64,000 nt of DNA. Source: Acidisarcina polymorpha (lineage in GTDB: Bacteria; Acidobacteriota; Terriglobia; Terriglobales; Acidobacteriaceae). Location: positions 4,836,001-4,900,000 of the forward strand of contig NZ_CP030840.1 in assembly GCF_003330725.1 (NCBI RefSeq), written 5' to 3'. Both the position numbers and the translations under genes were made by a program. Below, in pieces: positions 21,541-42,756 of this stretch. Each line of letters starts with the position of its first letter. Within the stretch, counting starts at the first letter, position 1. Below the pieces are notes generated by a model. The model did no database searches. It was not told the origin of the DNA and saw only the letters and a program-made list of their open reading frames with translations.

Positions 21541-23442
21541 GTGCGCCGGGATAAACCGGCATGAAGCAGGGAATGCAAGAGTCCTACGAGAAAGGAGTAG
21601 CGAACCGCTCGGCCCCGAGTTTTGCGTTGCGCACCGCGAGGTGCTCGGCGAAGCGTAAACAGGGGTACAGGTGGGCTGGGTATTGAGCTTCGAAAAGATG
21701 CAATCAGGACGCTGACGCTTTTGCATTGGCGGAAGGCAACACGGGAGGGAGCGATATCGCGAGTTCCTGACCGATCCTGCGTAGTCGTAGACCCCAGACA
21801 CGCCTGGAAGCTTCATGCACGAGAACCGGGAGACCTCGGAGGCTCCTGCTGGCAACAGTAGCAGGACGGCGGGTAAAGGCTCAGGCCGTAAGGCCCGCAT
21901 GAACGTCCCCGAGGAGTCGGACAGCGGCGTATTACCTATGAATCATTCGAACAAAATCGAGCAGTCGATGGCGGAGAGTGAGGAGGGAAGGCCGCTGATC
22001 AAGGAGAACATCCATCAGTCCAGCACGCGCCCGACACAGAGCGGGGCACGCGTGTCACAGGGGCTGGCGGGTGTGCGGAAAGCAGCAAGGGAACACAAGG
22101 AGAGGAAGTTCACCACTCTGCTTCACCACGTCACAGTCGATCTGCTAAGGGACAGCTTCGGTTCTCTGAAGCGCAAGGCTGCACCCGGCGTGGATGGGAT
22201 GACGTGGCAGGAGTATGAAGCTGGGCTGGAGGGTCGGCTTGCCGATCTGCACAGCCGGGTGCATCGCGGCGCGTATCGGGCGCTTCCATCGAGAAGGGTT
22301 TACATCGAGAAAGGCGACGGACGGAAACGTCCGCTCGGGATCGCGGCAGTGGAGGACAAGATCGTCCAGCACGCAGTGGTCACCATCCTCAACCAGATTT
22401 ATGAGGAGGACTTCCTCGGCTTCTCGTACGGTTTTCGTCCGGGACGCAGCCAGCATAAGGCGCTGGATGCGTTGTTTTATGCGCTCGTGAAGAGGAAGGT
22501 GAACTACGTACTTGATGCCGACATCCAGGGCTTCTTCGATAACCTCGACAAAGCGTGGATGATCAAGTTCGTCGAGCATCGCGTCGCCGACCGACGCATC
22601 CTGCGCCTGATCCAGAAATGGCTCAAGGCCGGGGTGATGGAGGACGGGAAATGGTCGGACACGGAGACAGGTACTCCGCAGGGGTCGGTGATCTCACCGC
22701 TCCTTGCCAACATCTATCTCCACTATGTGTTCGATCTCTGGGTGGACGTCTGGCGCAAGAAGTGTGCGCGAGGCGAGGTGATCGTTCTCCGCTATGCGGA
22801 CGACATCGTCCTCGGCTTCCAGTGGGGTACGGACGCAGACCGTTTCCGCAAGAGCTTGGAAGAACGGCTGGGGAAGTTCAGACTGGAGCTGCACCCGGAA
22901 AAGACGCGCCGGATCGAATTCGGGCGGTATGCCGAACAGAACCGGAAACGAAGAGGAGAAGGCAAGCCGGAGACCTTCGACTTCCTTGGCTTCACGCATA
23001 TCAGCGGGAAGAATGGGAACGGGTCTTATGCCGTGCGGCGCATGACGATCCGCAAGCGCATGCGAAAGAAGCTGCAAGAGATCAAGCAGCAACTCAGGAT
23101 GCGCATGCATGATCCCGTGCCTGAGACCGGCGCGTGGCTCAGGTCAGTTGTACAGGGGTACTTCCACTACTACGCTGTGCCCGGAAATCTCGATAGCCTC
23201 GGGCTTTTCCGGGAACGCGTGCTCCGCTACTGGGGGCAAGCGCTGAAGCGCCGTAGTCAGAGACACCGGTACGCCTGGGCGCGTCGTCTCAAACTGGCCG
23301 CACAATGGCTTCCTACACCTCGCGTGATGCATCCTTGGCCCCTTGACCGCTTCGCCGCCACTCATCCGAGATAGGAGCCGCATGCGCTAAGGAGCGCTCG
23401 TGCGGATCTGTGCGGGGGGCGATCAGTAATGATCGTCCCTAC
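21541..23442 (+). mobile_element. Group II intron with an encoded reverse transcriptase
   Basis: The 5' end matches the group II consensus (GTGCGCCGGG at 21541). The 3' part has a domain V-like hairpin at 23375-23408 (GAGCCGCATGCGCT, an AAGG loop, and the pairing strand ending CGTGCGGATC) and a domain VI hairpin around GATCAGTAATGATC, ending in CTAC near 23442. The exact 3' end is uncertain by a few bases. Size about 1.9 kb. It lies between the VOC and ankyrin genes without breaking an obvious gene. The intron-encoded protein occupies most of it. It moves by retrohoming through an RNA intermediate. Confidence 0.88.
21899..23374 (+). CDS. ltrA: Group II intron reverse transcriptase/maturase without endonuclease domain
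   Basis: An approximately 491-residue reverse transcriptase-maturase. Visible RT blocks include AAPGVDGMTWQEYE, RPLGIAAVEDKIVQ, GFSYGFRPGRS, LDADIQGFFDNLDK, GTPQGSVISPLLANIYLHY and the catalytic YADDIVLGF. The maturase X region follows (TFDFLGFTHISGK, GWYHYYAVPGN-like FHYYAVPGN). The protein ends soon after, with no HNH endonuclease domain, so mobility would rely on nicked or replicating targets. The frame opens upstream (ATG at 21815), but ATG 21899 (MNVPEESDSG) matches the usual start of this group. The stop lies right at the domain V RNA. Confidence 0.92.
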   Translation: MNVPEESDSGVLPMNHSNKIEQSMAESEEGRPLIKENIHQSSTRPTQSGARVSQGLAGVRKAAREHKERKFTTLLHHVTVDLLRDSFGSLKRKAAPGVDGMTWQEYEAGLEGRLADLHSRVHRGAYRALPSRRVYIEKGDGRKRPLGIAAVEDKIVQHAVVTILNQIYEEDFLGFSYGFRPGRSQHKALDALFYALVKRKVNYVLDADIQGFFDNLDKAWMIKFVEHRVADRRILRLIQKWLKAGVMEDGKWSDTETGTPQGSVISPLLANIYLHYVFDLWVDVWRKKCARGEVIVLRYADDIVLGFQWGTDADRFRKSLEERLGKFRLELHPEKTRRIEFGRYAEQNRKRRGEGKPETFDFLGFTHISGKNGNGSYAVRRMTIRKRMRKKLQEIKQQLRMRMHDPVPETGAWLRSVVQGYFHYYAVPGNLDSLGLFRERVLRYWGQALKRRSQRHRYAWARRLKLAAQWLPTPRVMHPWPLDRFAATHPR

Positions 23443-30348: not shown

Positions 30349-31068
30349 ATGTGCGGACGATACGTGCGACGTACTGACAAGCAGAAGATAGCGGAATGGT
30401 TCAAGGCCAAGAACGACACGGCAAATCTGCCAATGCCAGACGCGGATTACAACATCGCGCCGACGACGCATCAGCCGATAATTCGTCAGAGCAAGGAAAC
30501 GAACGAGCGCGAGATGGTCTTAGCCCGTTGGGGTTTGGTGCCGTTCTTCACAAAGGAGCTATCGGACATCAAGGGACTGACGACGATCAACGCACGGTCT
30601 GAGACCATCGCGACAGCGAAAACTTGGCGAGAGCCAATGAAAAAGCGGCGTTGCATCATCCCAGCAAGCGCGTTTTATGAGTGGCCGAAGGAGGGAAAGC
30701 CGCCTAAGCAGCCGTATGCTATCGAGGTTTCCAGCGGCAACCTGTTCGCGTTCGCAGGTTTGTGGGACGCATGGAAAGACAAAGACGGCCACTGGCTGCA
30801 ATCGTTCGCGATTGTCACAACTGACGCTAACGAACTCATGTCCCGCATACATCCGCGTATGCCCGTCATCCTTCACGCACGAGATTATGACCGATGGCTA
30901 GACCGCGAAGAGACCGAACGGCTTCCATTGGATTTGCTCAAACCATATGAGTCTGAAGAGATGGAGATGTACGAAGCCAATCCGAAGGTCGGCAACTTCC
31001 GCAACAACGGGCCTGAGATGCTGCAAAAAGCTCTCGACGCGGCGGAGTCTGGAACGCTACCCATCTGA
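30349..31068 (+). CDS. SRAP-family protein (YedK/HMCES-like abasic-site crosslinker)
   Basis: A 239-residue SOS-response-associated peptidase family protein. After removal of Met1 the catalytic Cys2 (MCGRYVRR) forms a thiazolidine link to abasic sites in single-stranded DNA. Other family marks are present: DYNIAPTTHQPI, ARWGLVPFF, TINARSETI, the FYEWP glutamate and the active-site histidine in RIHPRMPVIL. Such proteins shield abasic sites during replication and are often carried on plasmids and conjugative elements, where single-stranded DNA is exposed during transfer. It follows a coupled 75-residue gene. Confidence 0.93.
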   Translation: MCGRYVRRTDKQKIAEWFKAKNDTANLPMPDADYNIAPTTHQPIIRQSKETNEREMVLARWGLVPFFTKELSDIKGLTTINARSETIATAKTWREPMKKRRCIIPASAFYEWPKEGKPPKQPYAIEVSSGNLFAFAGLWDAWKDKDGHWLQSFAIVTTDANELMSRIHPRMPVILHARDYDRWLDREETERLPLDLLKPYESEEMEMYEANPKVGNFRNNGPEMLQKALDAAESGTLPI

Positions 31069-31328: not shown

Positions 31329-32590
31329 ATGCCGGACACGATTTCGTTCTTACATCTTTCGGATATTCACTTTACCAAAGGCACCAGCAATGTCAGTTCC
31401 TTTGATATTGATCGGATTGTTCGGAACGAACTTGTCCGTGACGCCGCTAATTTACTTCCGGCGGTTCAGCCCCTGACAGGAATCATCGTTTCCGGTGACA
31501 TAGCATTTGCTGGTAAACCGGACGAATTCAAGACCGGAATTGATTGGCTAGCAGAACTCTCTGCCAAGCTCAACTGCGATCCAAGTTTGGTCTGGTGCGT
31601 ACCTGGCAACCATGATGTTGACCGCAATGTGATACGTGAACACACAGGTATCACTCCCATCCAAAACGAAATCCGCGTATCAACGGACCTTAACGCGTGC
31701 ATGAAGAGGCACCTGACAGCGGCGATGCTGCAGTGCTTTTCGAGCCTCTCAGAGCCTATAACGACAGCATTGGTCAAAGATTTGAATGTGCATCAGTTCC
31801 AGCAAAGCCGTGGTGGGAATTCGATCTTGGCCTCAATGACGGATCAACACTTAGGCTACGAGGTCTAAACAGCTCAATCATCTCCGGCGACAACGACAAA
31901 GAACACACCTGCCTGCTTTGTCTTGGCCCCGCTCAGTACGAGTACATGCGCGAAGATGACGTGACCTACCTCACGATTTGCCATCATCCTCCTGATTGGC
32001 TCGTGGATGGAGCAGAAGCCCGGACAGCACTGAAGGCCTATTCGAAGGTCATTCTCACAGGGCATAAGCATTTCCACGAAGAAGAGGAAGTGAATGGGAC
32101 TCTCTGGCTCAGTTCTGGGGCCGTACATCCTTCCCGAGCTGAACAAAAGTGGGAACCAACGTACTACTACCTCAGGTTTGAAGTAGAGGACACTGATTGT
32201 CAAAGGCTCCTAATAGTGGATGTCTTTCGGCGCATCTGGAACGACTCTTCGAAGATGTTCGTGCGTCCCGCGGGTCAGCAAGAAGATTTCAAGACATACA
32301 AGCTGCCTCTTTCGAAGAGGCAAAAAACAGGCGAGAGTGTAACACTAGTCACCCAACCTTCTACTGGAGGTGTCGAAGTGTCATTGAACAGGAAAAAACT
32401 TCTCTATGCGTTCGTGGCATTGCCGTACCACACCCGGCTTTCGATCATGGAACAACTGAAACTGATTGACGAAGACAATCGCGGACTTCCGGATAACGAA
32501 CGGTTCGCATCCTGCTTTGATCGAGCAGAGAAACAAAACCGCCTGAACGATGTGTGGGACTTGGTTGAGTCAAGGCAAGCGACTTCTTAG
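31329..32590 (+). pseudogene. Calcineurin-like metallophosphoesterase, split by a frameshift
   Basis: Two overlapping frames together encode one metallophosphoesterase of about 420 residues. The first (31329-31868) carries LHLSDIHF, VSGDIAFAG and the VPGNHDVDR motif. The second (open from 31694 to 32590) carries TICHHPPDW and LTGHKHFHEEEE. All five metal-site motifs are present only if the frame shifts by -1 between about 31710 and 31725, where KRHL in the first frame leads into DSGDAAVLFEPLRAYN in the second. No classical slippery heptamer is seen, so a one-base deletion or sequencing error is likelier than programmed shifting. It is the first gene of the GTPase operon, ending 9 bases before the next start. 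Confidence 0.8.
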
Positions 32591-32599
32591 GAGAATATT

Positions 32600-33655
32600 G
32601 TGCACGAATTATTTCCGAATTGGATGAACAAGGTATCACCGCAGATTGATGAGGCGCGTTTGACGGCGCGTTGGAACGCTGCAAAGAAGGTCGCCGACGA
32701 AGCGAATGAGGCGGGCATACTGGCACTTGCCGAACAAGCACTCAATCTCAGTTCCGCTGCAACTGAGACGGTACGCGTTTCAGCACGCTTGGCGGACACT
32801 ACCTATGTCTCAGAAGATGATGCACTTGAGCTGTCCGCTCTGGCAGCGGGAGCTCTTGCGTCACTCATGACCACCAATTCCCGCAAGGGGGAGACAGCAG
32901 CGGCATCAGTTCGAGCGGGCCTGTTCGGCCGTTCGAGTAGTAAAGGGATGACCCAAGATCTCCGCCGTTTGGCGGACGCCGCAATCCAGCGAATCTCCGA
33001 AGAGGACCGTAAAGACGCAGTGGTACCAACTTGGGCAGGAAAGGCGATCACTGATGTTACCGGCAAGCAAGCGGTTGTCGTCGATTTGTCCACAACCCAC
33101 ACGTTGGTTCTTGATGCCGCGCAAGCAACGATCAATTCGGTGAAGGCACAATTCCAGAAGTTCACCGACGCTTTGTCTAAAATGAGCTCCCTGCAAAAAG
33201 AATCATCCGACCTCGCATATCTGCTTGTGTCGCAATACTCCTTCGTCGCAGGGAAAGTCATTTCATCTATGAGCGCAAGTGATGCTGCTTTTTGTTCGAG
33301 TAGAGACCTTTTCAACGCAACACAGTTCACATCGACGCTTCCCGCATTCGAGGCCTCGCTCGCGATGCTCTTGAGGCCAGCGAAGTTGTCTAAGAAGGCC
33401 GTTACGCTATCGCAGGCTGTTAGTGGTCTCGACGGGGAAATCCGCCAGGCAATCATAAGTAATTCGGTTGTCTTTCCTAAAATTCTCCCGCTTCATTTTG
33501 CCGTCCTCAAGTGCCAAGAAGTCTCAGGAGGGGAGACGTGGGCTCCGGCCTTCGAGACAGTTACAGGTTTGAAGAGTAGCCTCTCGCAGACCCCTGAAGA
33601 GCTTGCCGCTCAGTTTTATCTCGAATCGATATTGATCTGGCATCTGGAAGGCTAA
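32600..33655 (+). CDS. GTPase-associated helical protein (GASH-like)
   Basis: A 351-residue, largely alpha-helical, alanine-rich cytoplasmic protein starting at a GTG. The first 70 residues (HELFPNWMNKVSPQIDEARL; RWNAAKKVADEANEAGILAL) and later helical repeats match, by recognition, the GTPase-associated system helical domain described with predicted bacterial conflict systems. It has no catalytic motif. Position second in the operon, 9 bases after the phosphoesterase and 5 bases before a GTPase, indicates tight co-expression. It may be a scaffold or regulator of the GTPases. The family name is from memory and should be confirmed by a profile search. Confidence 0.6.
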   Translation: MHELFPNWMNKVSPQIDEARLTARWNAAKKVADEANEAGILALAEQALNLSSAATETVRVSARLADTTYVSEDDALELSALAAGALASLMTTNSRKGETAAASVRAGLFGRSSSKGMTQDLRRLADAAIQRISEEDRKDAVVPTWAGKAITDVTGKQAVVVDLSTTHTLVLDAAQATINSVKAQFQKFTDALSKMSSLQKESSDLAYLLVSQYSFVAGKVISSMSASDAAFCSSRDLFNATQFTSTLPAFEASLAMLLRPAKLSKKAVTLSQAVSGLDGEIRQAIISNSVVFPKILPLHFAVLKCQEVSGGETWAPAFETVTGLKSSLSQTPEELAAQFYLESILIWHLEG

Positions 33656-33660
33656 GAACG

Positions 33661-34536
33661 ATGATTAAGTTGCATCCGGGATTGGCACTGAAGGCGGATG
33701 ATGTCTATCAGATTTGCCGTGGAGGCGACACGAAAATTGTCGCGCTCATGGGGACGATCGGTTGCGGGAAAACGACGTTGATAGCGGGGATTTTTCAAGC
33801 TTTTCTCGAGGGGAGTGTTGCCGGATATAGCTTCCGAAGGTCAGACACGCTGGTGGCTTTCGAAGAGAAGTGCTTTAACTCGCGCACATCTTCGGAGAGC
33901 TCAGTCGCTTCAATGCCCCGGACTTCGGGGCAGGTAGGTGCGGAGTTCTATCATTTGGAGGTCGTTCGAGATGCGGACCGATCCATCCACCGAATCTTGC
34001 TTCTGGATTTATCGGGTGAGGTATACGAAGGGGCGATGCACGTCGAAGACGATGCGGCCAAGCTCACAGTTCTTCGCGACGTAAGCCTCCTTGTTCAATT
34101 GATCGACGGCAAGAAGTTGTCCTCGGGCGCGACACGCGAAAAGGTCTATTCGGATGCAAAAGGGCTTCTGCGTCGTCTGTTCGAAGTGAACTCGATCACC
34201 GCTCAGACGCCGTTGCAGGTGGTTGTCTCAAAAGTAGATCAACTCGTGGGCGATGACACTTCGCAGCGAGCGCTTGAAGCTGTGCGCGCGACGGTCGCCA
34301 GCCGGTTTGCCAAAGAGAGTCAAAGACCACATTTTGAGATTCGTGAAATAGCAGCCAGCCCGGCGCAGGAGACGACGGTCCCGATGAGATTTGGTGTGAA
34401 TGGCTTACTGAGCTCATGGCTTGCAGACGAGGAATCTGCCATGCCGGCTTTGCCCAAGCTCAAAGTGTCTGGTGACCGATTGCAGCATCGGCTCGGCGAA
34501 GTCTGGATGCCAGAAAGGTTCGAAGCAAGTGAGTAA
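33661..34536 (+). CDS. P-loop GTPase of the double-GTPase conflict system (first)
   Basis: A 291-residue small GTPase-like protein. Walker A is GTIGCGKTT at residues 31-39, the G3-type motif is LLLDLSGEVYEG with DLSGE at 116-120, and the G4 base-recognition motif is VVSKVDQ at 190-193. The DLSGE form (rather than DxxGQ) is shared with the next protein. The layout matches the DO-GTPase families described as paired GTPases in predicted conflict systems. It overlaps the next GTPase gene by 8 bases. It probably senses an invader or a partner and switches an effector; that is inference. Confidence 0.75.
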   Translation: MIKLHPGLALKADDVYQICRGGDTKIVALMGTIGCGKTTLIAGIFQAFLEGSVAGYSFRRSDTLVAFEEKCFNSRTSSESSVASMPRTSGQVGAEFYHLEVVRDADRSIHRILLLDLSGEVYEGAMHVEDDAAKLTVLRDVSLLVQLIDGKKLSSGATREKVYSDAKGLLRRLFEVNSITAQTPLQVVVSKVDQLVGDDTSQRALEAVRATVASRFAKESQRPHFEIREIAASPAQETTVPMRFGVNGLLSSWLADEESAMPALPKLKVSGDRLQHRLGEVWMPERFEASE

Positions 34537-35413
34537 TTCCGCGGAAAAGGGCATACTGCTGGTGGGTCTACCAAAGGCTGGCAAGACCACATTCGTTGCT
34601 GCGTTGTGGCATGTCCTCAACTCCGAGGAGATCACGGATTCTCTGCGTCTGAGCGTTCTAGGCGGTGACGACACATATTTAAATCAGATTCGGGACGAGT
34701 GGCTGAACTACCAAGAAGTCATTCGGACTACACAGCAGAATGAAGCGATTCCGACGATGCATCTTGTCGACAAAAGCGGCCAGCTGAAGTGTGCGTTGAG
34801 CGTGCCAGATCTCTCAGGTGAGACCTATGTTAGCCAGTGGTTGGACCGGGAGTGGTCCGACAAATTCGCGGCTGCAGCAAGGGGCGCATCGGGAATACTT
34901 GTTTTTATTCATCCAAATCAGCCCTTGGAAGCTCCAGAGATTACAACAACGATGCGGATGCTTGCGCCGTTCCCGGAAGAAGAATCTTCCTCCGAAGACC
35001 CTGTGGATGAAGCAGTCTGGGACCCAGAAAGGGCAGCGGGAATCGTTCAGTTGGTTGAGGTGTTGCAGTTCTTGCAAAAAAATCTTCACCGACCCCTGAG
35101 GATCGCAGTGATGGTATCTGCTTGGGATCTCATTAAGGCGCGTTACGCGACGCCGCAGGAGTTCATTCGCACACGCACTCCGCTCTTGGAGCAATACATG
35201 CGGACGAACGGCGACACGCTGAATTTTACGGTCTTTGGGGTCAGCGCCCTGGGCGGAGACCTAGAAAGCAAAACGGACACTGATCGCTTGCAAAATGAGA
35301 CAGCATGCGCATCAGATCGCATCGAAGTCGTTCCCTCCACGGCGGAAAACCTCCATGACATAACTCGTCCATTGCGGTGGGCTTTATCGTGGCCAGAAGG
35401 CGAGTCCGCATGA
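34529..35413 (+). CDS. P-loop GTPase of the double-GTPase conflict system (second)
   Basis: A 294-residue GTPase-like protein translated from GTG 34529, within the end of the first GTPase gene; the frame is open further upstream but that part overlaps the neighbour. Walker A is GLPKAGKTT at residues 13-21, DLSGE recurs at 94-98, and VSAWD at 196-200 replaces the usual NKxD base-recognition motif. The alteration may relax guanine specificity. It shares little sequence with the first GTPase beyond the motifs, so the two are likely distinct partners, not a tandem duplication. Its stop overlaps the next gene by ATGA. Confidence 0.75.
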   Translation: MSNSAEKGILLVGLPKAGKTTFVAALWHVLNSEEITDSLRLSVLGGDDTYLNQIRDEWLNYQEVIRTTQQNEAIPTMHLVDKSGQLKCALSVPDLSGETYVSQWLDREWSDKFAAAARGASGILVFIHPNQPLEAPEITTTMRMLAPFPEEESSSEDPVDEAVWDPERAAGIVQLVEVLQFLQKNLHRPLRIAVMVSAWDLIKARYATPQEFIRTRTPLLEQYMRTNGDTLNFTVFGVSALGGDLESKTDTDRLQNETACASDRIEVVPSTAENLHDITRPLRWALSWPEGESA

Positions 35414-37395
35414 GGCTCGAACAGGCACTTTTCGGATACAAAGGTGGCCATCGGCGCATCTCTAGTTCGATTTCGTTTCAACCCGGAGATGAACGATTTC
35501 TCGTACGTATGACGGACCTGTCGGGCTCGCGGTCAGTGCCCGGATTCGAAAATTACGTGAGTGGGTATGCGCTTCCATCGAAGTCTGGATATGTGTTTGC
35601 AAAGACCTGGAATGCACCTGAGTGTGAGCGCCCGGGCTGTGTCTGGACGCACGTGATGTTGGTCGGGTCGGGAGATTGGCGTGGACTCACTCCTGCCGGT
35701 ATATCCGAATCGTTCCATCGCCCCGCTGCTGAGAAGCTTGGATTCGATTCATATTCCAACTGTTTGGTAGTTGGAACTGAGCCTGGCGACGAGCGCTTAC
35801 CGAAACTAGAAATGAGAGAAAACATCGTCCGTGCGCTTTACTCCGATGATCGTCCCATCATCATCTCTGAGTCCGAGGAGCGAACACAACTCAGTTTGTT
35901 TTTGATGAGTTTGGTGATGCAGCGTCCACTCGCGACGAGGCTGTCTCTCTCCTTCTGCACAGGAGCTCTGAGCTATCTAGAAGCTAACTCTGTCCCAATC
36001 CGCATTCAAGCCATGCCATCGCGAATTGCGCGGATGGTCAGGGACGAAGTTCATCTTCTTCATGGTGAGGAAGAGCCTCTTGTATCAGAGTGGGCAAAGT
36101 GGCTCGTGAAGGACCTAAAACGAAAAGACATCGTTCTCGAGGAGCTTTTCGCTCCCTTTGATAACACAAGCCAGACGTATGAAGAGCCGGAGTCGGTTGC
36201 GATCATTCGCAAGCTCTCCGAAGCCCGCGTTTTATTTCAATGCGCTCACGATGGGAGTCAGACAGCCGAAGATGTGTTGCGTGGAGTGACCACGCTTTTT
36301 CCTGATGGCGAGACACAAGTCCCGTTTAAAAACGCTCTTGTTGGGGAGCTTGCGAAGACCTCATCTCAGAGAAATTCTCTGGTTAGAGTTCTGTTTGATT
36401 CGGAGGAGATTGCTTTTGCACTACAGGAATCAAAATCTTCACTGCTTTCGGTCGCTTCGCTTCTTGCGAAGCAGGACCCAACGCTGGCTCTGAACCTATT
36501 GAATGATGTGCTCTTTCGGCCTTACAAGAATAAGGTCCAACAAGACTTGGTCCACTTTCTGCTATCCGAGATCCAACTCTTAGCGGCTGAGCCGACGCGC
36601 CCATTAGAGACGCAGGTGCTATTTGCCATTGCTCGTGAACAGAAGGAGCTGATCTCGCGCCCAGGGTTCTGGCTATTACAGCGGTCTTTTGACGAATCGA
36701 TTGAGCTCGCGGAAACTCTGGCCGAAGACTTAGACGACGAGCTTGTCCTGGCAGGCTTACTCGCTGCTGGTAGATTCGATCTGCTTGTTCGGATACTCAG
36801 AATGAGAGGCGCGCAAGGTGCGAGAGAGGCACTTAGTTTAGCGAGGAGCTTAAAACTCAACGATTCGAGTGAGTACCAGAAAGTGCTAGCTTTGCGTGGC
36901 GAAGTGTTAGATTTCGCGCAAACACTTGCTTGGGGGGAAGCATATTCCATGCGACCTTTGAACGAAGCGCAGCTATTCATTCTTGCGAGTTCAAGTGTTG
37001 AGCCGCACCGCCTTGTTGCGCTGGCGCCCGATATCTCGATCTGGTTAAATGCGTTGAGCGCGCTCCCATCAGAACCGCAAAGGATGTTTGCAATCGCCGT
37101 ATTCCTGGCCTGCGGAGAAGAATTTGCAGAAGGGTGGAGACTGCTGAGAAAGTCCTTTGATGTTATTCATCAATCGACAGGTTCGAAAACGATTCCATCT
37201 GAGTGGTGGGGGCTCGTCAAGTCGCGGCTCCCCACGCTAGCTGTTTGGGAAAAGTGGGATAAGTGTGAGCGATTACGCAGGGGGGCCGTGGACTCAATCC
37301 TTCGAGCAGGATTACCTGAGTCGATGGTTGAACAGGTTTCCCAAGATCGAACCCTGCAGCAGCGGCTCAGAGAGATCTATAGGAACCGCCGATAG
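35410..37395 (+). CDS. GAP1-type protein (GTPase-associated protein 1)
   Basis: A 661-residue cytoplasmic protein starting at ATG 35410 (ATGA overlap). The N-terminus is distinctive: LEQALFGYKGGHRRISSSIS followed by FLVRMTDLSGSRSVPGFENY and a GYVFAKTWNAPECERPGCVW segment. This pattern is that of the GAP1 N-terminal domain, found only with DO-GTPases in predicted conflict systems. The middle and C-terminal parts (about 200-661) are helical and leucine-rich, with acidic patches, and resemble the GAP1 M and C regions. It has no nuclease or protease motif; it may transmit the GTPase signal. Family assignment from memory. Confidence 0.72.
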   Translation: MRLEQALFGYKGGHRRISSSISFQPGDERFLVRMTDLSGSRSVPGFENYVSGYALPSKSGYVFAKTWNAPECERPGCVWTHVMLVGSGDWRGLTPAGISESFHRPAAEKLGFDSYSNCLVVGTEPGDERLPKLEMRENIVRALYSDDRPIIISESEERTQLSLFLMSLVMQRPLATRLSLSFCTGALSYLEANSVPIRIQAMPSRIARMVRDEVHLLHGEEEPLVSEWAKWLVKDLKRKDIVLEELFAPFDNTSQTYEEPESVAIIRKLSEARVLFQCAHDGSQTAEDVLRGVTTLFPDGETQVPFKNALVGELAKTSSQRNSLVRVLFDSEEIAFALQESKSSLLSVASLLAKQDPTLALNLLNDVLFRPYKNKVQQDLVHFLLSEIQLLAAEPTRPLETQVLFAIAREQKELISRPGFWLLQRSFDESIELAETLAEDLDDELVLAGLLAAGRFDLLVRILRMRGAQGAREALSLARSLKLNDSSEYQKVLALRGEVLDFAQTLAWGEAYSMRPLNEAQLFILASSSVEPHRLVALAPDISIWLNALSALPSEPQRMFAIAVFLACGEEFAEGWRLLRKSFDVIHQSTGSKTIPSEWWGLVKSRLPTLAVWEKWDKCERLRRGAVDSILRAGLPESMVEQVSQDRTLQQRLREIYRNRR

Positions 37396-37801
37396 ATCGA
37401 GCGATTTGACAACCGCCAGATCTCGAGCAGTCCCTCAGGCGGGACCGGAGTGGTGATGGTTGAGCAATGCCGCACATGAGGCATTGCTGCGCTCAAATGT
37501 TGGTTATTTACGAGCCGCTATTGAAGTCCAAATCGTCTACTCTTTGGCTCCTCTACGAGCTTTAAGTGGAGCGAACGCAAAGTCTAGAAGGGCATTCCAC
37601 GATAAGATTTCAACTGGACCCCGACATGGATTACAGCTAGGTCGTTTCGCGCTTCGGAACGCGATTTGAAGCACCAGAGGGTGCCCGATGCTCCGGCGTT
37701 GGGTTGGGAACGGGACCGAATAGAGGAGTAGTGTTGAGCGTGCTGTCGGCAAATTCGAGGGTGGTCAGAGTCTTCAATTGCAGCGCGAGCTGGGGGTGCG
37801 T
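37396..37801. other. 406-base gap between the GTPase operon and the helicase gene, with a hairpin
   Basis: No gene is supported. A perfect 9-base stem AGCAATGCC / GGCATTGCT with an 8-base loop lies at 37463-37488, about 70 bases after the GAP1 stop; no T-run follows. The gap and the change in base composition on either side suggest that the helicase pair is a separate transcription unit with its promoter here. No clear promoter consensus was found. Confidence 0.5.
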
Positions 37802-40800
37802 ATGACGCCTGAAGCGCCCCTGGTCCTTGACCTCCTTACATATATCGAACAAGTCGAAAAGCTCAAAGCAAAACCCGCCTTTACGGTGCCGACCGATTTC
37901 TTCCTCGCCAATCAGCACGACCTAAAGGGTCTGCCTGAATTGCAGTTCAATGTCCAAGACGCGGGCGGTGACATCTGGCTCCGCATTCCGCGTCTCCATG
38001 AAATCGCGCCGCCGCCGCCCGATGCAACGCTTGTTGCATGGGTCACTCTGCCCAAAGTGCCGACGAAGCTGCCTGACCTCAAAACCCAGATTGAAATTCA
38101 CAATGGCAAGCAATTCGTCCGCACGGAGCGCTTGGAAGAGCGCCCCGAAGTCTCTGAGTTGTTCGCTTGGTATGTCGAAAACCAGTGGAAGCCCTGGGCC
38201 GCTGCGGAAGCGCCGAGGCGTCAGACCATCAAGCGCTACAACGAGATGTTTTCGTTGCAGCAGACGATTTCGACCGAAGGCTCTGAGACGCAACTGGAAC
38301 TGGTTTGGGGTCTGGGTTATGCAGTCTGGAAGAAGGAGGGCGCGGGGCCCGCGCTCAAGCACCCGCTGATAACCCAGTCTTGCGAAATCACCCTGAACGA
38401 AAGCAATTTCGATCTGGAGATTCGCCCGCGCGAGGTTGACCCGCGCATTGAACTAGATACCTACACGGCAATGGAATTGCCGGGAGTGCGCCAACTTGAA
38501 ATTTTCTGGAAGTCCTCCTTAGAGAACGGCGCGAACCGGCCCAATCCATTCGAGGCGTCCACCTATGAAGGCGCACTCAAGGCCGCTGTCGGTCATCTCG
38601 ACCCCACGGGTGAATACGTCGTCCTCACCGACGATCCGACGCCGCCGGCAGCCGGCGACAAACTCAAAATTACCAATAGCTGGGTTGTCTTCGCACGGCG
38701 GCGCTCAAGCGGCATTTTTCTGGAAGATGTCGCCCGTCTTAAAAAGAGCGTCGAAAAGGCCACCAAGCTTCCGGCTGTCGTCCGAGATTTTGTGGAGCGT
38801 GGTGATCACGAAATCAAAGAACCGGTGATGCAAAGCTACCGGGGTCTGTCATCCAGCGAAGGCGACCATACCGCGTCTGAGCTGTATTTCCCGATGGCTT
38901 ATAACGATGAGCAAGTCTCCATCGTGCAGAAATTGCAATACGGCAATGGCGTTGTCGTGCAAGGGCCACCGGGCACGGGCAAAACGCACACAATCGCGAA
39001 CATCATTTCGCACTACCTCGCGCAAGGGTTGCGCGTCCTGGTCACGTCCAAGGGCGAGAGCGCCTTGAACGAAGTCATCGGGAAACTGCCGGAGCGCATT
39101 CGCCCGCTTTGCGTCGGCTTGCTATCGAACGAGAGTGACGGGATGCGGAAGTTTGAGCATTCCATCCAGACGATTGCGGCGAACATTTCCGGCATGAACG
39201 CGGCGCGGGCACACGCGGAAATCACCGCCCTGCAAGACAAGCTCAATCAACTTCACGGCAAAATCTCGAATGTCGACCGGCAGGTTGCGCACTACGCATC
39301 GCAGCACATGAGGAACTACACCTTCCAAGGCCGGGAAGTGACGCCGGAAGAAATGGCAAAGCTGGTGTTGGCCCAAGCCGACGATCACCAGTGGATGGAT
39401 GACGATCTCCCGGAAGACGATGTGGCGATACTCTTTAGCGAGGCGGACGTAAATGCCTTGCGGCAGGCGCGTATTAAAGTCGGCAAAGATATTGTTTATC
39501 TCAACTGCTCGGTTCCGCCCGTGGACGCCTTTCCGGGCTGGGCAGTTTTGAGCGAACTGCACCGCGATCTTTCGCGGTCGAAATCAATCGAAGCCGATAT
39601 TGCTTTGGGCTCGGTCATACCGCTCAAGGATGCAACATTCGAGACATTCGAGGCCGGTAAGGGCTTGATGGAGTTTCTTGACCGCCGTCAGGCGCTGCAA
39701 AAGAAACTCGCGCAGTCGAGCACTCCCATTCTCGAAGCTATCTCAACGCATCTCGGCAATATGCGGGCCGATGATCTGCTGCTGTCGGCCCTACTGCAAT
39801 CCTGCGCCGATGTCCGCGCTTTGGAGACGCGGCGTAAGGATTTGCTCACCAAGGCGGTCTCAGTGCCGCAGGATGCCGAAGCGAACCTGGACTTTTTGGA
39901 GGCAGTTCAACGGTTGCGCACCGGCAAGAGTGCCTTTGCGTTGCCGTTTGGCAAGGGTGAAGCCCGCAAGCTCGTGGCGGCGGTGACTGTCGTCGGCTCT
40001 GCGCCGTCCACATCCGCCGATTGGGAGTTGGTCGAAGAAGCGCTGCGATGGCGGGCGGATGCGAAGAAGACAATCGCCAAGTGGAATTCGGTAGCCGCTG
40101 AATTCGGGATTGAAGCCCAGACGGGTGCACTCGATCTTGCCTGCCGGTCGATGACACAACTGCAAGAGTTCGTCCAAGACACACACGCGCTTGCGTTTGA
40201 CTACGACGCCAAGCTCCGGGATGAAACGGAAAAGGTCTTTGACACCCGGTCGGCGGAAACGCTGCTTGAAAAAGGCGAGGGCACTGTTGTTGCGATCCGC
40301 GAATCCCTTCATGCGCATGTCGATAAGGGTCGTTTGTCCTATGCCATGAATCGGTTGGGCGAGGTAGTGGGCAAGCTCACCGGCCGCAACGGCCAAGTCG
40401 TCGATGCGTTGCGGTCATTCCTGACGGAAGTCATTGGCAAGCAAGAGCAGGAAGATTCCACACTGCACAACCTCTGGCTTTCCCTGCAGACCGAATTGAC
40501 CCGGGTGAATAGCTTGCGGCCCGGGCTTGATGACATTCTGCGCGTATCGGCCCTGATTGAAGCTGGCGGCGCAAAGAAGTGGGCGCATCGTATTCGCACC
40601 GAACCTGCCGAGAGTGACAACGATCCGGTCGTTTTGGCGACGTGGCGCGAGGCTTGGAATTGGCGTTGCGCCGTCATGTTCCTAGAGAAGATCGACGGTC
40701 ACGCGAAGCTGCGCGAACTGTTCGGCCATCGCAAGATAATGACGACGATTTTGGCGAGAACCTATCAAGACCTGGTCGCCGAAAAGACTTGGCTCGGGGT

Positions 40801-42274
40801 CTACAACAATTCGCCAACGGCGATTCAGCAAGCTTTGCAAGCCTATTTGAATTCCATTCAGGCGATGGGAGCGGGGACAGGTGTCCGTGCCGTTCGCCAT
40901 CGCCGCAGTGCCCGCGAGGCAATGAAGCTGGCTTATAAGGCGGTACCTTGCTGGGTGTTGCCGGAATGGCGCATTTCGGAAACACTGCCGCCCGACCTTG
41001 GCTTGTTTGACCTGGTTATCATTGACGAAGCCTCTCAGTCGGATATCTGGGCTTTGCCCGCGCTATTGCGCGGTGAAAAGCTCCTGGTCGTTGGCGACCA
41101 TAAGCAAGTCTCGCCGTCTGCCATCGGCGTCCCGGAAGAGAAGATCAAAGAGCTTCGCGACCGCTTCCTTACCAATCAGCCCTTCGGTTCTGAGATGACA
41201 CCGGACAAGTCGATATATGACTTGGCGCGCGTTGTCTTCGCGGGTAGCTCGGTCATGCTGCGCGAACACTTCCGCTGCGTCCCGGCCATCATCGAATACT
41301 CGAACCGCGAATTCTATGAAGGCGACATCAAGCCCCTCCGTTTGCCAAAGGCAAACGAACGTCTCGACCCGCCTTTGATCGACGTGTTTGTCAAAGGTGG
41401 ATATCGCCAGACGGATGTGAACCAGGCGGAAGCCAAGGCCATCGTCGATGAAATCGACTTAATCTTGGCCGACCCTGACCTTGCTGGTCGGTCTATCGGT
41501 GTTGTCACGCTGCTTGGCACCGCGCAGGCCGCGCATATTCAAGCGCTCGTTGGCGACCGTATCTCGCCGGTCGATGTCATTAGCCGTCAAATCGCGGTCG
41601 GGCCGCCGCCTGTCTTCCAAGGGCGTGAGCGGGACATCATGCTTGTCTCAATGGTCTTAGGTCCGAATGAGCGCGGCGCGGCCAATCGCGCCGATATGAA
41701 GCAGCGCTACAACGTAGCGATGTCTAGGGCACGTGACCGCATGTATCTGTTCCGCTCCGTCGAAAGCAACGCTTTCGGGGAAGACACCTTAAACGGTCGT
41801 CTAATCCGGCATTTCAAAGAACCGTTCCGGATTGACGGGCGAAGCTCCCAGCTTCTCCGCGATCGCTGCGAGTCCGGCTTTGAGTTCGATATGTTCGACG
41901 AACTAGTGAAACGCGGCTACCGCGTCGAGCCGCAGGTTCGCTGCGGTGCTTTTAAGATTGATTTTGTTGTCGAAGGGCGGGAGGGTCGTCGCTTGGCTAT
42001 CGAGTGCGACGGCGACCGTTTCCACGGGCCCGGCCAATGGTCGGACGACATGGCCCGTCAACGCGTCTTGGAGCGGGCGGGCTGGACATTCTGGCGTTGC
42101 TTCGCCTCAAGCTGGGCGCGTCGCCGAGATGAAGTGGTCGGCGATCTTTTGCAAACCCTCGACTCCTTGGGCATTGAACCGTTGGGCTCCGAAGCGGTCG
42201 ATAACACTGTGTGGGTTCACTACAAGGAAGTCGACCCGTTCCAAATTGAGGAGCCACTTGCAGAAACGCTATGA
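37802..42274 (+). CDS. SF1 (Upf1-like) helicase with C-terminal Vsr/DUF559-type nuclease domain
   Basis: A 1490-residue protein. The start is the ATG at 37802 with GGGGG upstream; the frame is open 26 codons further. An N-terminal region of about 350 residues has no recognised domain. The helicase core has Walker A GPPGTGKTHTI at about 387, a long helical insertion (about 470-1040), motif II IIDEASQSD at about 1073 with VVGDHKQVSPSA, REHFRCVPAII, QGRERDIMLVSMV and motif VI NVAMSRARDRMY at about 1306. Residues about 1365-1450 form a PD-(D/E)XK nuclease: CGAFKIDFVVEG, LAIECDGDRFHG, and RVLERAGWTFWRCF. Single-protein helicase-Vsr architectures have known antiphage members. It should unwind and cut foreign nucleic acid. 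Confidence 0.85.
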   Translation: MTPEAPLVLDLLTYIEQVEKLKAKPAFTVPTDFFLANQHDLKGLPELQFNVQDAGGDIWLRIPRLHEIAPPPPDATLVAWVTLPKVPTKLPDLKTQIEIHNGKQFVRTERLEERPEVSELFAWYVENQWKPWAAAEAPRRQTIKRYNEMFSLQQTISTEGSETQLELVWGLGYAVWKKEGAGPALKHPLITQSCEITLNESNFDLEIRPREVDPRIELDTYTAMELPGVRQLEIFWKSSLENGANRPNPFEASTYEGALKAAVGHLDPTGEYVVLTDDPTPPAAGDKLKITNSWVVFARRRSSGIFLEDVARLKKSVEKATKLPAVVRDFVERGDHEIKEPVMQSYRGLSSSEGDHTASELYFPMAYNDEQVSIVQKLQYGNGVVVQGPPGTGKTHTIANIISHYLAQGLRVLVTSKGESALNEVIGKLPERIRPLCVGLLSNESDGMRKFEHSIQTIAANISGMNAARAHAEITALQDKLNQLHGKISNVDRQVAHYASQHMRNYTFQGREVTPEEMAKLVLAQADDHQWMDDDLPEDDVAILFSEADVNALRQARIKVGKDIVYLNCSVPPVDAFPGWAVLSELHRDLSRSKSIEADIALGSVIPLKDATFETFEAGKGLMEFLDRRQALQKKLAQSSTPILEAISTHLGNMRADDLLLSALLQSCADVRALETRRKDLLTKAVSVPQDAEANLDFLEAVQRLRTGKSAFALPFGKGEARKLVAAVTVVGSAPSTSADWELVEEALRWRADAKKTIAKWNSVAAEFGIEAQTGALDLACRSMTQLQEFVQDTHALAFDYDAKLRDETEKVFDTRSAETLLEKGEGTVVAIRESLHAHVDKGRLSYAMNRLGEVVGKLTGRNGQVVDALRSFLTEVIGKQEQEDSTLHNLWLSLQTELTRVNSLRPGLDDILRVSALIEAGGAKKWAHRIRTEPAESDNDPVVLATWREAWNWRCAVMFLEKIDGHAKLRELFGHRKIMTTILARTYQDLVAEKTWLGVYNNSPTAIQQALQAYLNSIQAMGAGTGVRAVRHRRSAREAMKLAYKAVPCWVLPEWRISETLPPDLGLFDLVIIDEASQSDIWALPALLRGEKLLVVGDHKQVSPSAIGVPEEKIKELRDRFLTNQPFGSEMTPDKSIYDLARVVFAGSSVMLREHFRCVPAIIEYSNREFYEGDIKPLRLPKANERLDPPLIDVFVKGGYRQTDVNQAEAKAIVDEIDLILADPDLAGRSIGVVTLLGTAQAAHIQALVGDRISPVDVISRQIAVGPPPVFQGRERDIMLVSMVLGPNERGAANRADMKQRYNVAMSRARDRMYLFRSVESNAFGEDTLNGRLIRHFKEPFRIDGRSSQLLRDRCESGFEFDMFDELVKRGYRVEPQVRCGAFKIDFVVEGREGRRLAIECDGDRFHGPGQWSDDMARQRVLERAGWTFWRCFASSWARRRDEVVGDLLQTLDSLGIEPLGSEAVDNTVWVHYKEVDPFQIEEPLAETL

Positions 42275-42756
42275 GCCGTCCTCTGATTCAAAAACGCATT
42301 GATGAACTCGAAGCGATGTTCGACGCCGAAAAAGGCGATCCCGACGCATTGCGGCTGTTAGAAAACGAACTGGCCTTCCGCTCTGTGCCCCGCGCGACAA
42401 CGCTCTTAAATAAGGTGAAGCGCGTCCTCGCCGGTGGCACGGTTGCTGAAGCAAAGCAAGATGAATTATTCGCGCACAGACCACCGGTCGCCGTGCAAGT
42501 TCCTCTGATGCCAATCAAACCAACATCCTCGCCGAAGCCGGTCATTTCCATGACCATTGACGAAGCGCTCAAGGTTTTGAAGGTCACCGCCAGCACCGGT
42601 TGGGAAGCGGTCGAGCAAAGCCGCCGGGACGCAGTTGAACGTGCCCGACCGGACAGGCTGACGTCACTCAGTGAAACAAAGCGCCGTACGTTGCGAGAAG
42701 ACGCCCGAAGCGCAAACGCGGCATACCTCGTAATGCTGCAAGCCAGAAAAGCCTAA
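42271..42756 (+). CDS. Protein with a degenerate J-domain-like C-terminus, coupled to the helicase-nuclease
   Basis: A 161-residue protein. The C-terminal 70 residues have J-domain layout: DEALKVLKVTASTGWEAVE, a second helix SRRDAVERA, then RPD at 126-128 where active J-domains have HPD, and a closing NAAYLVMLQARK like the fourth J helix. The N-terminal part has a helix (RIDELEAMFDAEKGDPDAL) and a Pro-rich linker. Loss of the histidine should prevent stimulation of Hsp70, so it may be an adaptor or inhibitor. It overlaps the helicase-nuclease stop by ATGA, which argues that they act together, for example as a control subunit. Confidence 0.65.
   Translation: MSRPLIQKRIDELEAMFDAEKGDPDALRLLENELAFRSVPRATTLLNKVKRVLAGGTVAEAKQDELFAHRPPVAVQVPLMPIKPTSSPKPVISMTIDEALKVLKVTASTGWEAVEQSRRDAVERARPDRLTSLSETKRRTLREDARSANAAYLVMLQARKA

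What the first reader, a model, noticed from the sequence alone, without database searches (positions are those of the whole stretch)
31329..37395. Operon encoding phosphoesterase, GASH-like protein, two GTPases and a GAP1 protein: a predicted GTPase-switched conflict system
Five genes on one strand with gaps or overlaps of -8 to +9 bases encode a calcineurin-like phosphoesterase, a helical GASH-like protein, two distinct GTPases that share a DLSGE G3 motif, and a protein with the characteristic LEQALFGYKGGHR start of GAP1. The families were described computationally as parts of bacterial conflict systems; I know of no experimentally worked-out mechanism for this combination. Being on a conjugative element beside a helicase-nuclease strengthens a defence reading. 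A phosphoesterase could be the effector or could remove a signalling nucleotide.
Basis: partly seen in the sequence, partly recalled or inferred. Interest (0 to 1): 0.87.

Follow-up and report, generated by a model that had tools for sequence, protein, structure and literature searches.

The report
GTPase-switched conflict operon, effector broken
A mobile element carries a five-gene, GTPase-controlled system predicted to fight invaders; its effector gene is broken here, but its control protein resembles GTPase regulators of our own cells and keeps an unvarying arginine where some of those regulators have their catalytic one.

Summary
The operon is real and belongs to a described but, as far as my searches show, untested kind: the GAP1-N1 DO-GTPase conflict systems (PMC7159879). 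Pfam confirms phosphoesterase, GASH, DO-GTPase2, DO-GTPase1 and GAP1-N1. The same gene order stands in 65 of 80 stretches from many phyla. In two close pairs of systems the core proteins are 57-83% and the GAADs 71-75% identical, yet the effector domains are unrelated; this supports GAAD as the effector plug. New here: the modelled GAP1 N-terminus has longin strand order; the only listed matches spanning it are longin-DENN proteins and TagF, at middling Z 6.3-6.6. One arginine, found in 76 of 76 GAP1-N1 and 15 of 15 GAP1-N2 sequences examined, sits in the loop where DENN GAPs keep their arginine finger. I propose that GAP1 turns the GTPases off. No sequence link to DENN was found; this is a prediction.

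The parts
31329..31868 (+). Effector gene, first reading frame: N-terminal half of a calcineurin-like phosphoesterase; frame lost within the overlap with the next part
   Evidence: Metallophos 2.2e-4; profile positions 7-192 of 440; motifs DxH, GD, GNHD
31697..32590 (+). Effector gene, second reading frame: C-terminal half of the phosphoesterase
   Evidence: Profile positions 133-432 of 440; Metallophos_2 1.2e-4, below its cut-off; motifs HH and GHxH
32390..32569 (+). GAAD adaptor domain (residues 232-291 of the second frame)
   Evidence: PF19976 E 9e-20
32600..33655 (+). GASH protein, all-helical
   Evidence: PF19994 E 7.7e-7; model pLDDT 91.8; no solved structure matched at E 0.001
33661..34536 (+). 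DO-GTPase2, canonical G4 motif (SKVD), no zinc ribbon
   Evidence: PF19993 E 1.4e-38; motifs; alignment
34529..35413 (+). DO-GTPase1, unusual G4 motif (SAWD)
   Evidence: PF19975 E 2.3e-75 for the longer ORF from 34421; motifs
35410..37395 (+). GAP1: longin-like N-terminus, mixed alpha/beta part, helical repeats
   Evidence: PF20012 E 2e-24; model pLDDT 85.1, pTM 0.70; fold comparison
35410..35712 (+). Longin-ordered domain (residues 1-101), about the span of Pfam GAP1-N1
   Evidence: Strands 2-10, 14-19, helix 25-35, strands 48-54, 60-68, 78-86, helix 95-101
35629..35631 (+). Codon of Arg74, proposed arginine finger in the beta4-beta5 loop
   Evidence: Arg in 76 of 76 GAP1-N1 sequences; position of the DENN GAP arginine from PMC12803157

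Best explanation
A GAP1-N1-type DO-GTPase conflict operon on a conjugative element. Shown: the families, the conserved order, intact nucleotide-binding motifs in both GTPases, a full set of metal-site motifs split over two frames in the effector gene, and exchange of effector domains on a constant GAAD in relatives. Inferred: the two unlike GTPases form the switch. GAP1 touches them through its longin-like N-terminus and, with the invariant Arg74, speeds GTP hydrolysis, so the switch rests in the GDP state. An invader's trigger, sensed by GASH or by GAP1's helical repeats, lifts this brake. The GTP-bound core then gathers or releases the GAAD-bearing phosphoesterase, which cuts a nucleotide or nucleic acid and stops growth of the infected cell. 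In this copy the effector gene is out of frame, so the switch probably has no working output.
For: Pfam families. Same order in 65 of 80 stretches. Matching description in PMC7159879. Metal-site residues in 56-57 of 57 phosphoesterases; nearest solved relatives are a phosphohydrolase (2dxl) and Rv0805. Effector domain exchanged while GAAD (71-75%) and core (57-83%) stay alike in two close pairs; at least 5 effector changes on the core tree. G1, G3 and G4 motifs conserved, unlike G4 in DO1 and DO2. GAP1: longin order, the only listed matches spanning the N-terminus are longin-DENN proteins and TagF, arginine in the beta4-beta5 loop in 76 of 76 and, in GAP1-N2, 15 of 15 examined. Among 106 nearest flanking proteins, 6 are phage integrases and several match restriction, Lamassu, Dnd, Dsr1, PifA or SoFic models.
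Against: No experiment on any homologue was seen. The window's effector is frame-broken. The DENN likeness rests on one predicted model with middling Z; PDB profile search gave 0 hits, Pfam scan gave no DENN or longin family, hhalign against TagF gave nothing. Foldseek's best PDB match to GAP1 was AP-2 at E 2.5e-3, i.e. helical repeats. The sensor and the phosphoesterase substrate are guesses. The loci were picked by a DO1 motif and are not a random sample.
Confidence: 0.55

Rival explanations
1. GAP1 is a scaffold or a nucleotide-exchange factor, not a GTPase-activating protein; the longin-DENN likeness is a common arrangement, and Arg74 is there for folding.
For: Z 6.3-6.6 is within the range the tool calls common. 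No sequence link. Arg74 stands in a wholly conserved loop (TWxAPExxRPGxVWTH), as a structural turn might. Many DENN proteins are exchange factors (PMC12803157 passages).
Against: Arg74 is the only one of the 20 tabulated positions without exception in 76 sequences and is matched in the separate GAP1-N2 type.
Confidence: 0.45
2. The phosphoesterase is not the killing effector but clears or tunes a nucleotide signal, while another component acts.
For: Its nearest solved relatives by profile include Rv0805, a phosphodiesterase by recall. PMC7159879 predicts a nucleotidyl phosphodiesterase and notes SLATT partners in some systems.
Against: Unrelated domains (PNP-type, alpha/beta hydrolase, a 1205-aa protein with a weak NTPase match) take the same place on a GAAD, which fits exchangeable effectors. 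No nucleotide-making enzyme was found among the five genes.
Confidence: 0.2
3. The system serves the mobile element (element-element competition or maintenance) rather than anti-phage defence.
For: It lies beside relaxase and T4SS genes; 23 of 29 plasmid records with a relative are typed conjugative; no relative in 50,697 phage records or by two viral-contig scans.
Against: Flanks of chromosomal relatives include restriction and other defence models. Defence genes often ride on such elements, so the readings overlap.
Confidence: 0.25
4. The frame break is an assembly error and the window's operon is intact.
For: All motifs are kept in both halves and the halves together span nearly the whole profile; long neighbouring ORFs are open, so only this gene is affected.
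Against: The same openness of the neighbours (1498, 899 and 672 aa) speaks for a low error rate.
Confidence: 0.4

Closest known systems
GAP1-N1 DO-GTPase conflict systems (Kaur et al. 2020, PMC7159879; section 28 read, other passages seen)
   Same: GAP1-N1, GASH, two DO-GTPases, calcineurin phosphoesterase with GAAD; one operon
   Different: Effector gene frame-broken here; no zinc ribbon on DO-GTPase2; the paper's text does not mention longin or DENN
DENN-domain GAPs (Avl9 type; PMC12803157, passages seen)
   Same: Longin strand order in the model; conserved arginine between strands beta4 and beta5; acts beside GTPases
   Different: No detectable sequence similarity; helical repeats follow; partners are DO-GTPases; activity untested
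C9orf72-SMCR8 and FLCN-FNIP longin-domain GAPs (PMC8213707, PMC7464330, PMC8336837, passages seen)
   Same: Longin-based GTPase control with a catalytic arginine; a GTPase pair in the Rag case
   Different: Those GAPs are pairs of two longin-DENN subunits; only one such protein is encoded here
TagF of type VI secretion (PDB 9t0n)
   Same: Fold match to GAP1 residues 1-277, Z 6.5, 220 aligned, rmsd 5.0
   Different: hhalign against eight TagF sequences gave Prob 0.0; different gene context

Membership tests
GAP1-N1 DO-GTPase conflict system | GAP1 protein with a type 1 N-terminal domain | tested here: met
   PF20012 E 2e-24, above cut-off
GAP1-N1 DO-GTPase conflict system | Two DO-GTPase genes | tested here: met
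   PF19993 1.4e-38 and PF19975 2.3e-75; intact G1, G3, G4
GAP1-N1 DO-GTPase conflict system | GASH protein | tested here: met
   PF19994 E 7.7e-7, above cut-off
GAP1-N1 DO-GTPase conflict system | Variable effector coupled by fusion to GAP1, EAD1 or GAAD | tested here: met
   GAAD E 9e-20 on the second effector fragment; the gene is frame-broken
GAP1-N1 DO-GTPase conflict system | Usual but not defining: N-terminal zinc ribbon on one GTPase | tested here: not met
   Absent in the window; the pattern is found in 41 of 77 DO2 proteins of such loci, so I do not treat it as defining
GAP1-N1 DO-GTPase conflict system | Protects against invaders | not testable with these tools
   Needs phage and plasmid challenge of an intact homologue
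Longin-DENN GTPase regulators | Longin domain order (beta-beta-alpha-beta-beta-beta-alpha; order recalled) | tested here: met
   DSSP of the GAP1 model
Longin-DENN GTPase regulators | Whole longin-DENN fold | tested here: inconclusive
   Z 6.6 (8p0v_M, 232 aligned), 6.3 (6ekk_A, 240 aligned); below 8, so possibly a common arrangement
Longin-DENN GTPase regulators | Sequence kinship with DENN or longin families | tested here: inconclusive
   None detected: Pfam scan of 56 members, PDB profile search
DENN GAPs (Avl9 type) | Conserved arginine between strands beta4 and beta5 of the longin domain | tested here: met
   Arg74 between strands 60-68 and 78-86; 76 of 76; 15 of 15 GAP1-N2 examined
DENN GAPs (Avl9 type) | Stimulates GTP hydrolysis by its partner | not testable with these tools
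   Needs purified proteins

The most novel reading that the evidence does not exclude
GAP1, the core protein of the DO-GTPase systems, is a bacterial longin-DENN GTPase-activating protein that uses an arginine finger in the beta4-beta5 loop to hold an asymmetric GTPase pair off until an invader is sensed. The DENN-type GTPase control of eukaryotic traffic and nutrient signalling would then have a bacterial immune counterpart, by descent or by convergence.
Probability: 0.4. Interest if true: 0.85.

Novelty: new member of a known kind. Interest (0 to 1): 0.6.

Why it matters
These systems were described from sequence, and I saw no worked-out mechanism. A fold and one unvarying residue for their core protein turn 'GTPase-associated' into an enzyme activity that can be measured. 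Passages of PMC3521125 place the joining of longin, DENN and d-DENN in the eukaryotic stem lineage; a bacterial protein with longin order, a matching arginine and a partner GTPase pair bears directly on that. The effector exchanges on a constant GAAD show a natural plug for directing different enzymes from one switch.

Tried and rejected
Programmed frameshifting in the phosphoesterase gene: rejected, since the 57 homologous ORFs are single frames and the region has no unusual RNA structure (z 0.68). Helicase-nuclease as a sixth component: rejected, a relative in 1 of 79 other stretches (flanks of at most 10 kb, many shorter). GASH as a known fold: Foldseek best E 0.29, best Z 4.2; left open. 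Viral homologues: none confirmed in two viral-contig scans or in phage records. Sequence link between GAP1 and TagF: none. Foldseek of GAP1 against viral models: nothing at E 0.001. Near DNA relatives: none in plasmids; in 40 relatives' genomes one 35-base match. The tree warns of long branches, the window's among them, so its sister row L059 is unsure. A first, strict motif count (GD in 42, HH in 47 of 57) undercounted, because of the neighbouring letters that I had fixed, and was replaced by aligned columns. Of 16 GAP1-N2 matches one (L110, under the cut-off) was not examined. The tree used 72 of 80 stretches; the 8 without all four core genes were left out. Of 76 GAP1 proteins, 56 went into the model's alignment, because only sequences from the window and the search for related loci are allowed and near-copies and some outliers were dropped.
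Full report
What is there. Searches show co-directional genes at 31329-37395. Pfam gives calcineurin phosphoesterase, GASH, DO-GTPase2, DO-GTPase1 and GAP1-N1, in that order. The phosphoesterase gene is split over two frames whose ORFs overlap at 31697-31868; the second part ends in a GAAD domain. The two ORFs cover positions 7-192 and 133-432 of a 440-position profile, and the five metal-site motifs are all present, three in the first part and two in the second. The break is therefore recent or an assembly error; I could not tell which. The first fragment also matches, far below their cut-offs, NCBIfam models named anti-phage phosphoesterase (DS9_1, E 8.2e-17, 61.2 bits against 420) and DS8; a paper search for these names found nothing.

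Setting. The window holds a TrwC relaxase, a TrwB-type coupling protein, and T2SSE, TrbI and CagE_TrbE_VirB type genes of a T4SS. Downstream, 37778-42274 encodes an SF1 helicase with an MTES_1575 nuclease domain, distantly like ProA and PDC-S37 (below the NCBIfam cut-off). A relative occurs in 1 of 79 other stretches, so I treat it as a neighbour.

Spread. GAP1-N1 occurs in 3 of 396 genomes of the phylum, the own genome included. Plasmid records with a match: 29, of which 23 are typed conjugative, 5 mobilizable and 1 non-mobilizable. A scan with an alignment of DO-GTPase1 found 72 loci in genome contigs. The order effector-GASH-DO2-DO1-GAP1 stands in 65 of 80 (the window is counted with its broken effector, and an effector was counted if it matched my phosphoesterase-GAAD profile). 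Of the other 15, eight are cut at or near an end of the sequence held (L010, L037, L041, L049, L052, L068, L075, L077), four have a core without a recognised effector (L005, L044, L078, L079), and in three only DO1-like GTPases were recognised (L080-L082). The sample was picked by a DO1 motif and is not random.

Effectors. Of 65 ORFs in the effector place (the window's not included), 62 match GAAD, 57 Metallophos, 2 PNP_UDP_1 and 1 an alpha/beta hydrolase. L055 has 1205 aa with a weak NTPase match, and L045, L059 and L061 show GAAD alone. The metal-site residues are present in 56-57 of 57 phosphoesterases. On the core tree the effector type changes at least 5 times. In two close pairs (L007 with L054 or L026; L055 with L048) the four core proteins are 57-83% identical and the last 75 residues, holding GAAD, 71-75%, while the rest of the effector aligns only over 17-45 residues with scores of 35-49, which I take as chance. 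This supports the published prediction that GAAD is the adaptor (PMC7159879, section 28). Nearest solved relatives of the phosphoesterase by profile are 2dxl (E 2.3e-9) and Rv0805 (E 1e-5).

Flanks. I scanned the nearest ORF of 120 aa or more on either side of 63 stretches (50 upstream, 56 downstream). Of these 106 proteins 6 match Phage_integrase and 2 Mrr_cat. PADLOC models matched include LmuB (2 members) and, with one member each, type I and IIG restriction-modification, PifA, SoFic, Dsr1 and DndC; only the first 25 of 76 families are listed. There was no control set, so this is suggestive only.

Switch. The P-loop lysine is present in 80 of 80 DO1 and in 74 of 77 DO2 rows (the other three have gaps), and the G3 glutamate in 80 of 80 and 76 of 77. 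DO2 has a canonical G4 (lysine and aspartate in 77 of 77). DO1 has SAWD there (S 76, A 71, W 75, D 80 of 80). The two GTPases are thus unlike, and the window's copies keep every motif.

GAP1. The AlphaFold model (56 sequences, pLDDT 85.1, pTM 0.70) starts with strand-strand-helix-strand-strand-strand-helix, which is the longin order (recalled), then a mixed alpha/beta part, then helices to the end. Foldseek against the PDB gave nothing at E 0.001. Its best rows are AP-2 and other helical-repeat proteins (E 2.5e-3 downwards); TagF came at E 0.29, probability 0.84, and a chain of C9orf72-SMCR8 at E 0.18, probability 0.51, the aligned part not stated. In the second look, 3 of the 50 rows shown span residues 1 to about 280: 8p0v chain M (an entry with DENND10; that chain M is DENND10 is my inference), TagF, and 6ekk chain A (DENND1A with Rab35; likewise), at Z 6.6, 6.5 and 6.3. 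The other 47 rows match the helical repeats. The tool warns that Z under 8 may reflect a common arrangement. Sequence methods give no link to DENN, longin or TagF.

The arginine. PMC12803157 (passages seen) says that the predicted catalytic arginines of monomeric DENN GAPs lie between strands beta4 and beta5 of the longin subdomain. In the GAP1 model beta4 is 60-68 and beta5 78-86; Arg74 lies between them. It is found in 76 of 76 GAP1-N1 sequences, and of the 20 conserved positions that I tabulated it is the only one without an exception. In the separate GAP1-N2 type, 15 of 15 sequences examined (of 16 matches) carry an arginine in the matching loop; hhalign pairs it with Arg74 (Prob 42.5, P 2.6e-4, against Prob 0.0-4.2 for five other alignments), and a histidine follows, matching His81 (counted by eye, and one row, L107, has two arginines there). 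PMC7159879 has no occurrence of longin, DENN or roadblock in its text. The rows listed by three searches showed no report of a bacterial DENN or longin protein in defence; one search matched 1,365 papers of which 20 were listed, so this is a weak negative.

Mechanism proposed. GAP1 would be a GTPase-activating brake on the DO-GTPase pair; release of the brake lets the core deploy a GAAD-bearing enzyme. The brake, the sensor (GASH or the repeats) and the substrate of the phosphoesterase are inferred. In the window the output gene is broken.

Verdict. A new member of a known kind with a broken effector. What may matter beyond it is the longin-DENN-like GAP1 with its unvarying arginine, which is a prediction to be tested and not a family assignment.

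Noticed in passing
L073 10630-16263: In a Clostridium contig DO-GTPase1 is found in two pieces about 5.4 kb apart, the second just before GAP1: something seems to have inserted into the gene.
   Followed up: no
L068 and L069: Core proteins of a Bacteroidota bin and of a Clostridium are nearly the same (end branches 0.05): recent transfer between phyla, or a wrongly binned contig.
   Followed up: no
L007 3797-4984: On an Acetobacter plasmid the phosphoesterase is replaced by an alpha/beta hydrolase on a 71-75% identical GAAD.
   Followed up: yes
L055 4427-8044: A 1205-aa GAAD protein with a weak NTPase match stands in the effector place; its sister system L048 has a phosphoesterase there.
   Followed up: partly
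window 37778-42756: SF1 helicase-MTES_1575 nuclease (1498 aa) with a 161-aa partner gene of no known family; distant likeness to ProA and PDC-S37.
   Followed up: partly
window 30349-31068: Gene upstream of the operon that resembles an SOS-response-associated peptidase; relatives also lie in stretches L009, L013 and L018 beside the same system, 3 of 79.
   Followed up: partly
window 21815-23374: 519-aa reverse transcriptase (PF00078, 1.2e-35); not classified.
   Followed up: no
L080, L081, L082: Distant, longer DO1-like GTPases (about 530 to 550 aa) with no GAP1 or GASH recognised in the stretch held.
   Followed up: no
L042 3255-4320: About 1 kb lies between GASH and the DO-GTPase2 ORF in Camelimonas, where other systems have almost no gap.
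   Followed up: no
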